Source: Geminocystis herdmanii PCC 6308
Lineage (GTDB): Bacteria > Cyanobacteriota > Cyanobacteriia > Cyanobacteriales > Cyanobacteriaceae
Assembly (NCBI RefSeq): GCF_000332235.1
Contig: NZ_CM001775.1
Location: 1,171,630 to 1,235,629 of the forward strand
Reading direction: 5' to 3'
DNA length: 64,000 bases
In this document: positions 21,988-22,146 of the stretch, in pieces
How positions within the stretch are numbered: the stretch's first letter is position 1
Layout: the number at the start of each line of letters is the position of its first letter
The notes under the pieces: model-generated
The model's input: only the letters and a program-made list of their open reading frames with translations
What the model was told of the DNA's origin: nothing
Database searches by the model: none
Made by a program: the position numbers and the translations under genes

Positions 21988-22012
21988 ATTGAAAGGAGCA
22001 GAGGACTGAAAA
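21988..22012 (+). ncRNA. Delocalised CAST homing crRNA: repeat handle + 17-nt spacer
   Basis: ATTGAAAG (21988-21995) matches the 3' end of type V-K CRISPR repeats. It is followed by the 17-nt spacer GAGCAGAGGACTGAAAA (21996-22012). The spacer is identical to the anticodon-arm region of the adjacent tRNA-Phe (minus strand of 22109-22125). Immediately 5' of that protospacer is GTA, a GTN-type PAM. Short solitary spacers against a tRNA gene are known for homing by type V-K CRISPR-associated transposons. The upstream part of the repeat is interrupted by the intron. Confidence 0.85.
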
Positions 22013-22068
22013 CAATGACTTAAATGACATTAATTTGTCACTGATGACAATTAATTTGGCACTGTACA
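22013..22068 (-). mobile_element. Terminal end of a type V-K CAST (Tn7-like) transposon, relic
   Basis: Reading inward from the tRNA side on the minus strand, the end starts TGTACAGTG and carries two direct repeats, seen on the plus strand as ATGACAATTAATTTGGCACT (22044-22063) and ATGACATTAATTTGTCACT (22024-22042). These match TnsB-binding repeats of cyanobacterial CAST ends. The terminal base is 22068, 57 bp from the PAM in tRNA-Phe, close to the known insertion distance. The expected 5-bp target duplication on this side is CTTTA (22069-22073). No second end, cas12k, tnsB, tnsC or tniQ is found in the window. Confidence 0.85.
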
Positions 22069-22073
22069 CTTTA

Positions 22074-22146
22074 TGGCGGGAGGCGGAATTGAACCGCCGA
22101 CACGAGGATTTTCAGTCCTCTGCTCTACCAACTGAGCTATCCTGCC
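22074..22146 (-). tRNA. trnF: tRNA-Phe (GAA)
   Basis: Complete cloverleaf on the minus strand. The D arm contains AGCTCAGTTGGTAGAGC, the anticodon loop is CTGAAAA (anticodon GAA), and the T arm is GGCGG-TTCAATT-CCGCC. The discriminator is A and CCA is not encoded. The acceptor stem GGCAGGA/TCCCGCC has one A-C mismatch at pair 4-69. It is the homing target of the adjacent CAST relic. Confidence 0.96.

What the first reader, a model, noticed from the sequence alone, without database searches (positions are those of the whole stretch)
21988..22146. Relic of a type V-K CRISPR-associated transposon that homed to tRNA-Phe, with its guide still in place
Seen: the handle ATTGAAAG (21988-21995) is followed by a 17-nt spacer identical to the anticodon-arm region of the neighbouring tRNA-Phe. 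The protospacer has GTA directly 5' (a GTN PAM). A TGTACA terminus with two TnsB-like direct repeats lies 57 bp downstream of the PAM. Known: type V-K CASTs use delocalised short-spacer crRNAs to insert beside tRNA genes about 60 bp from the PAM. Inferred: a CAST inserted here and lost its core genes (cas12k, tnsB/C, tniQ), leaving the end and the guide. A guide surviving without its transposase could still be usable by a CAST elsewhere in the genome.
Basis: partly seen in the sequence, partly recalled or inferred. Interest (0 to 1): 0.93.

Follow-up and report, generated by a model that had tools for sequence, protein, structure and literature searches.

The report
Dead CRISPR-transposon end beside tRNA-Phe
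Beside a tRNA gene in a cyanobacterium lies the broken-off end of an RNA-guided transposon that still carries the 17-letter guide which brought it there; the kind of element is known, and the guide is most likely dead because a self-splicing intron has cut into it and no intact copy of the guide-reading protein was found on this chromosome.

Summary
At 21988-22012 the handle ATTGAAAG is followed by a 17-nt spacer identical to the tRNA-Phe anticodon-arm region; the PAM is GGTA and the terminus lies 57 bp from it. It is the only exact inverted 17-mer (gap 40-400) in the 64 kb window. The end matches 42 of 45 bases of the end beside an open cas12k in a sibling species, and the same guide sits beside tRNA-Phe with a Cas12k frame in other cyanobacteria. 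Two things were missed or overstated. A group II intron 3' end (RF00029, 21911-21987) abuts the handle and replaces most of the repeat part that should pair with tracrRNA. And no intact Cas12k was found on this chromosome: one copy has an in-frame stop, one a frameshift. Use of the guide in trans is therefore unlikely at present. The genome holds about ten CAST-derived loci. The relic is an ordinary decayed member of a known family; the most interesting side observation is a duplicated tracrRNA placed directly before the anchor guide in a sister element, a layout like a genome-encoded single-guide RNA.

The parts
22074..22146 (-). tRNA-Phe (gaa), the attachment site; the only tRNA-Phe among the 39 full tRNA hits listed for this genome (the search scored 150 of 370 candidates)
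22109..22125 (-). anchor protospacer in the tRNA anticodon-arm region, 17/17 identical to the guide
22126..22129 (-). PAM GGTA (GTN class)
22069..22073 (.). CTTTA, 5 bp between terminus and tRNA; would be the target duplication, but the partner copy was not found
22013..22068 (-). left end of a type V-K CAST: TGTACA terminus (22063-22068) and two TnsB-like repeats (22050-22064, 22029-22043); shorter than the ends of more complete relatives
21996..22012 (+). 17-nt anchor spacer (guide) to tRNA-Phe
21988..21995 (+). surviving 3' part ATTGAAAG of the truncated repeat R*; the GGATAG expected 5' of it from the same lineage is missing
21510..21987 (+). 3' part of a group II intron: maturase C-terminal HNH fragment (ORF 21507-21896) plus domains V-VI (RF00029, 21911-21987); its last base abuts the handle
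21389..21509 (.). small element with terminal inverted repeats (MITE-like) that adjoins the truncated 5' side of the intron fragment

Best explanation
A type V-K CRISPR-associated transposon once inserted downstream of tRNA-Phe. Its own Cas12k, programmed by a 17-nt anchor crRNA, recognised the tRNA anticodon-arm region with a GGTA PAM, and TnsB joined the left end 57 bp away (insertion step inferred from anatomy). A group II intron inserted at, or was joined to, the truncated repeat just 5' of ATTGAAAG. The rest of the element, with tracrRNA, cas12k, tnsB/C, tniQ and the right end, was lost, and a small inverted-repeat element sits at the cut side of the intron; the order of these events is unknown. 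What remains is one left end and the guide. The guide is probably not functional now: it lost most of the repeat part that pairs with tracrRNA, it no longer lies behind a tracrRNA/array promoter, and no intact Cas12k was found on the chromosome.
For: Exact 17/17 guide-target match, unique in the window. GGTA PAM and 57 bp PAM-to-end spacing, inside the published 46-82 nt range for V-K left ends (PMC9938897, passages seen). End identity over the first 45 bases: 42 to the end beside the open cas12k of sibling G001, 42 to the end beside the stop-bearing cas12k of the same genome; seven further tRNA-side ends of the family score 38-43, and the tRNA-Leu element 37. The same guide beside tRNA-Phe goes with a Cas12k match without stops over 655 positions in L084, a Cas12k in two pieces in L085 and a degenerate one in G058; with one changed base, with an open Cas12k in L083 (=G020). 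The intron match ends at 21987; related introns in G004 and G006 have other 3' flanks, so it is a separate mobile element. Cas12k: frame at C1:26080-27906 with an in-frame TGA at codon 165, 95.9% identical over 608 aa to the open G001 copy; frameshifted copy at 2978304-2980144; the element at 2571781-2582353 has open TnsB, TnsC and TniQ-like frames but no Cas12k. GGATAGATT of the lineage's R* is complementary to AATCTATCC in the 28-kb element's tracrRNA (the same 9-mer is present in G001's); duplexfold -12.4 kcal/mol there, whereas the relic's best duplex lies elsewhere at -7.0.
Against: No second end or target duplication was found. No syntenic empty site: in the four same-genus relatives the roughly 1.5 kb upstream of ppsA does not match the tRNA-Phe side of the window. 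The end is short (guide-to-protospacer gap 96 nt against 108-331 in loci with a Cas12k match), so the deletion cannot be timed. The pairing test is weak: an intact variant R* of G003, tried against the 28-kb tracrRNA and not its own, also paired best elsewhere (-9.9). The published R* is about 12 nt and 8 nt survive. tracrRNA was identified by position and similarity; Rfam gave no hit for it at gathering score. Plasmids, if any, are not in the held genome, and the TGA could be a sequencing error.
Confidence: 0.93

Rival explanations
1. The guide is still live and is used in trans by a V-K CAST of the same or an incoming genome, so the relic works as a stored address.
For: The spacer is 17/17 intact and the target is intact. 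Open TnsB, TnsC and TniQ-like frames exist in the element at 2571781-2582353. Sibling species carry open Cas12k. Orphan anchor guides also remain at 1852 kb and 687 kb. Three promoter-like matches lie near it against 1.1 (sd 1.0) expected.
Against: Both Cas12k loci of this chromosome are broken. R* lost most of its pairing part to the intron. Of the three promoter-like matches, two on the guide's strand begin inside the handle or beyond the guide and the third is on the other strand. In AnCAST tracrRNA and array share one promoter next to cas12k (PMC9938897, passages); no tracrRNA was found in the window. The target is already occupied.
Confidence: 0.05
2. The block is a short non-autonomous CAST derivative (two ends plus guide) moved in trans, whose second end was later lost.
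For: A 751-bp two-ended derivative with guide exists in the same genome at C1:687541-688291.
Against: No second end within the window. The 751-bp element also sits at a homing site matching its own guide (16/17), as an internally deleted copy would.
Confidence: 0.06
3. Chance inverted repeat beside an unrelated IS end.
For: TGTACA is short and palindromic.
Against: 17/17 match unique in 64 kb; end 42/45 to ends beside cas12k; 0 hits with three control handles.
Confidence: 0.01

Closest known systems
Type V-K CAST with anchor spacer / truncated repeat-spacer homing to tRNA genes (PMC9938897 and PMC11406308, passages seen; Saito 2021 and Hsieh & Peters 2021 seen only as citations)
   Same: 17-nt anchor spacer behind a truncated repeat, read toward the left end; GTN PAM; protospacer in the neighbouring tRNA; left end 46-82 nt from the PAM; TGTACA terminus and TnsB-like repeats as in cas12k-linked relatives
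   Different: No cas12k, tnsB, tnsC, tniQ, tracrRNA or second end; repeat interrupted by a group II intron; left end shortened
Degenerated V-K CASTs (PMC9938897 left twelve degenerated Cas12k proteins out of its tree; passage seen)
   Same: Decayed element; in this window beside a tRNA
   Different: Here cas12k is wholly gone from the site and only the end and guide remain; a cas12k-based survey would not find it
Bacterial group II introns with maturase-HNH ORF (RF00029)
   Same: Domains V-VI and HNH tail; copies at 84-89% identity in G004 and G006
   Different: Only the 3' part is left; it sits in a CAST anchor repeat

Membership tests
Type V-K CAST | 17-nt anchor spacer identical or nearly so to the adjacent tRNA gene, read toward the left end | tested here: met
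   17/17
Type V-K CAST | GTN PAM 5' of the protospacer | tested here: met
   GGTA
Type V-K CAST | Left end 46-82 nt from the PAM (range from PMC9938897) | tested here: met
   57 bp
Type V-K CAST | TGTACA terminus with TnsB repeats like those of cas12k-linked elements | tested here: met
   42/45 to the G001 end beside an open cas12k; 42/45 to the 28-kb element
Type V-K CAST | Truncated repeat R* of about 12 nt pairing with tracrRNA | tested here: not met
   Only ATTGAAAG (8 nt) survives; best duplex no longer at the anti-repeat, by a weak test
Type V-K CAST | cas12k, tnsB, tnsC, tniQ, tracrRNA in the element | tested here: not met
   Genome hits of NF038191, PF09299 and PF05621 all lie outside the window; tblastn with Cas12k, TnsB, TnsC, TniQ finds none in it; blastn with two tracrRNAs finds nothing better than E 0.14
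Type V-K CAST | Second (right) end and 5-bp target duplication | tested here: not met
   No second end in the window
Type V-K CAST | RNA-guided transposition activity | not testable with these tools
   needs an assay
Group II intron (fragment 21510-21987) | Domain V/VI structure above the Rfam gathering score | tested here: met
   RF00029 55.9 bits, gathering 40

The most novel reading that the evidence does not exclude
Orphan anchor guides left at tRNA genes after CAST decay form a dispersed, genome-wide guide store that an incoming V-K CAST of the same lineage can read in trans. Related elements take a step that way by carrying a second tracrRNA copy joined directly to the anchor guide, one naturally fused single-guide RNA reserved for homing.
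Probability: 0.05. Interest if true: 0.7.

Novelty: new member of a known kind. Interest (0 to 1): 0.33.

Why it matters
It shows that V-K homing sites can be recognised after the rest of the transposon has gone, from the end plus the guide alone, so CAST history can be read at tRNA genes that cas12k-based surveys miss. Here, by eye, 6 of 39 listed tRNA genes of one chromosome carry a CAST end, and none of its three larger elements keeps an intact Cas12k. If orphan guides were usable in trans they would link dead and live CASTs, but the evidence here points the other way.

Tried and rejected
First pattern for an end, typed from recall (TGTACAGTGACAN): 0 matches in the genome; the window's end has C where I had A.

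Second CAST end in the window: none. CTTTATGTACA with up to 2 mismatches gave 29 matches against 30.8 expected by shuffling. TGTACAGTGNCAAATTA with up to 3 mismatches gave 2 matches, both repeats of this end (0.9 expected). Right ends of L038 and L047 matched the window best at this same end; their other matches were weak (E 0.04 or worse) and short.

Empty site in relatives: not available. In all four same-genus relatives the DNA upstream of ppsA is conserved to about 21319-21329 and then differs.

Plasmid copies: two weak Nostoc matches only.

Idea that the group II intron specifically targets the CAST repeat: not supported. Relatives of the intron sit before other 3' flanks, although a different element also ends one base short of ATTGAAAG in the tRNA-Thr relic.

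Counting: the 3'-flank scan flagged rows by a loose rule (up to 3 mismatches); of these I kept 7 by eye (6 full tRNAs, one fragment). One of the rest, tRNA-Tyr, shares the tRNA-Thr end; the others I judged chance. An exact 17-base end match at 3626083 is not beside a tRNA and shows no second repeat, so it was not counted.

Literature: five searches, listings only: 25 of 381 shown; 25 of 80; 15 of 630; 3 of 3; 12 of 153. None shown describes, by title, start of abstract or the passages I opened (PMC9938897, PMC11406308, PMC10761935), a V-K end-plus-guide relic, a group II intron in a CAST guide, or a naturally fused Cas12k guide. Saito 2021 and Hsieh & Peters 2022 are not held, and preprints are outside the library. 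So 'not in print' is not claimed.

Full report
OBSERVATION. Handle ATTGAAAG (21988-21995) precedes GAGCAGAGGACTGAAAA (21996-22012), the exact reverse complement of 22109-22125 inside tRNA-Phe (22074-22146, minus strand). GGTA lies directly 5' of the protospacer on the tRNA strand. TGTACA (22063-22068) lies 57 bp from the PAM, followed inward by two repeats. In the 64 kb there is one exact inverted 17-mer with a gap of 40-400 nt, and this is it.

WHAT IT IS. I compared it with elements that still have Cas12k. In the same genus, G001 has an open Cas12k (861.9 bits to NF038191) whose tRNA-proximal end, beside tRNA-Val, is 42/45 identical to the window's end; the end of the 28-kb element of the same genome, beside a stop-bearing cas12k, is also 42/45. 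Other tRNA-side ends of the family, for which no Cas12k nearby is claimed, score 38-43 (for example G003 L047 43), and the tRNA-Leu element 37. A mechanical scan of all loci fetched by then for TTGAAAG + 17 nt + inverted copy (up to 3 mismatches allowed; all hits had 2 or fewer) followed by NAC gave 42 rows, which I count as 25 distinct places; three control handles gave 0 each. In the 19 of 25 places where TGTACA was found outside, the end lies 42-67 bp from the PAM. The loci were mostly fetched because they held a CAST end, tRNA-Phe or Cas12k, so this shows the architecture, not its frequency.

SAME GUIDE ELSEWHERE. A scan of the genome-contig collection for the guide pattern gave four stretches in three MAGs (records near the window may be left out). 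L084 (Xenococcaceae) has the identical guide beside tRNA-Phe and a Cas12k match without stops over 655 positions; L085 (Pleurocapsa) has it with a Cas12k in two pieces; L083 (=G020) has it with one changed base and an open Cas12k; L086 (same Pleurocapsa MAG) has guide and end beside a truncated tRNA-Phe (by eye) and no Cas12k match in its 5.7 kb. G058 has the identical guide with a degenerate Cas12k. In a draw of 386 genomes of the phylum, whose table does not list G058, the pattern occurs in 2, this one and G020. The layout of left end, truncated repeat R*, 17-nt anchor spacer and tRNA anchor protospacer, with 46-82 nt from PAM to left end, is published (PMC9938897, passages; also PMC11406308, passages).

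The 77 bases directly 5' of the handle are domains V-VI of a group II intron (RF00029, 55.9 bits, 21911-21987). Upstream is the HNH-bearing C-terminus of its maturase. Related introns in G004 (89%) and G006 (84%, two copies) are followed by other 3' flanks, the two G006 copies sharing about 15 bases. Intron homology runs left to about 21510 and adjoins a 121-bp element with terminal inverted repeats (21389-21509). In the same lineage R* reads GGATAGATTGAAAG (28-kb element, G001, G006) or a near variant (G003, G004). Its GGATAGATT is the complement of AATCTATCC in what I read as the tracrRNA downstream of cas12k in the 28-kb element; that tracrRNA is 94.8% identical over 231 bases in G001, where the 9-mer is also present. 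Duplexfold gives -12.4 kcal/mol there for the intact R*; the tRNA-Phe relic pairs best elsewhere at -7.0 and the tRNA-Thr relic at -8.2. The G003 variant, tried against this tracrRNA and not its own, also paired best elsewhere (-9.9), so the test is weak. Six of the nine pairing positions (GGATAG) are replaced in the relic by the intron's last bases.

STATE OF THE MACHINERY. Cas12k (NF038191) hits two loci in this 4.26 Mb single-contig genome. The first, C1:26080-27906, is 95.9% identical to the open G001 protein over 608 aa but has an in-frame TGA at codon 165. The second, 2978304-2980144, is split between two frames. A third large element, 2571781-2582353 beside tRNA-Pro(cgg), has both ends, an exact anchor guide, a partial tracrRNA match (98 bases) and open frames for TnsB (PF09299), TnsC (PF05621) and a TniQ-like protein (no Pfam hit of its own; 47.6% identical to a protein that hits PF06527), but no Cas12k. 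So no intact V-K set was found on this chromosome. Plasmids are not held and a sequencing error at the TGA cannot be excluded. In AnCAST, tracrRNA and array come from one promoter beside cas12k (PMC9938897); blastn with two tracrRNAs found nothing better than E 0.14 in the window. Promoter-like matches near the guide are three against 1.1 (sd 1.0) expected; the two on the guide's strand lie inside the handle or beyond the guide.

GENOME SETTING. Rfam tRNA gave 40 hits from 150 scored of 370 candidates: 39 full tRNAs and one fragment. By eye on the scan of their 3' flanks, 6 of the 39 carry a CAST end: Thr(ggt), Pro(tgg), Phe, Pro(cgg), Met and Leu(gag). Four more end-like loci sit at tRNA fragments, one by Rfam (1248 kb) and three recognised by eye (28, 347 and 687 kb). 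That makes about ten CAST-derived loci.

SISTER ELEMENTS. In the tRNA-Leu element (L038) a tracrRNA lies behind cas12k (12209-12415) and a second copy, 74.8% alike, at 12800-13030 runs directly into R* and the anchor guide. Three other elements (G001 L050, G003 L146, G006 L147) have a tracrRNA core motif at the same distance from the anchor spacer; whether they too have two copies was not tested. The 43 bases before the spacer fold into an anti-repeat/R* hairpin in two of five such loci (L050, L147) and into a competing longer hairpin in three (L038, L120, L146). This is a lead only.

MECHANISM, SHOWN AND INFERRED. Shown: anatomy, guide-target identity, family identity of the end, intron junction, broken Cas12k frames. 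Inferred: RNA-guided insertion of a full element, intron arrival and deletion of the rest (order unknown), present inactivity of the guide. Against a simple story: no second end, no duplication, no syntenic empty site.

VERDICT. A real, decayed member of a known family.

Noticed in passing
L038 12209-12415 and 12800-13054; L050 near 8827; L146 near 367; L147 near 3612; L120 4160-4223; also L140, L155: Layout like a genome-encoded single-guide RNA: L038 carries two tracrRNA copies, the second joined directly to R* and the anchor guide. In L038, L050, L146 and L147 a loose tracrRNA core motif starts 102 nt before the end of the anchor spacer; L120 lacks the motif; L140 and L155 have it at 113 and 126 nt; six other loci match it only at 225-278 nt. 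The short anti-repeat/R* hairpin is the minimum-energy fold in 2 of 5. Not seen described in two searches, but key papers are not held.
   Followed up: partly
G000 C1:687541-688291 (L120 3542-4292): A 751-bp derivative with both CAST ends, R* and a guide (16/17 to an adjacent tRNA-like fragment that ARAGORN does not call) but no CAST genes seen in it.
   Followed up: partly
G000 C1:1852487-1852565 (L037): A second end-plus-guide relic at tRNA-Thr(ggt), guide 15/17. A different repeated element ends one base short of ATTGAAAG, almost the same spot as the intron in the window.
   Followed up: partly
G000 C1:2571781-2582353 (L196/L125): CAST with both ends, exact tRNA-Pro(cgg) guide and open TnsB, TnsC and TniQ-like frames but no Cas12k.
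   Followed up: yes
L038, L120, L196/L125: None of the three two-ended elements shows matching 5-bp target duplications at its two ends.
   Followed up: no
G000 C1:1248298-1248480 (L132, L197): CAST end with an intact GGATAGATTGAAAG repeat and a guide GAGTGCTACCATCTCAC beside a tRNA fragment to which the guide scan gave no match.
   Followed up: no
G000 C1:28636-28700 (L034) and C1:1564113: The 28-kb CAST abuts only a 3' fragment of tRNA-Ala (by eye), while an intact tRNA-Ala(cgc) without a CAST end lies at 1564113.
   Followed up: no
L086 404-700: In a Pleurocapsa MAG the same tRNA-Phe guide and a CAST end abut a tRNA-Phe cut off inside the protospacer, by eye.
   Followed up: no
window 21389-21509: MITE-like element with 16-nt terminal inverted repeats directly adjoining the intron fragment.
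   Followed up: no
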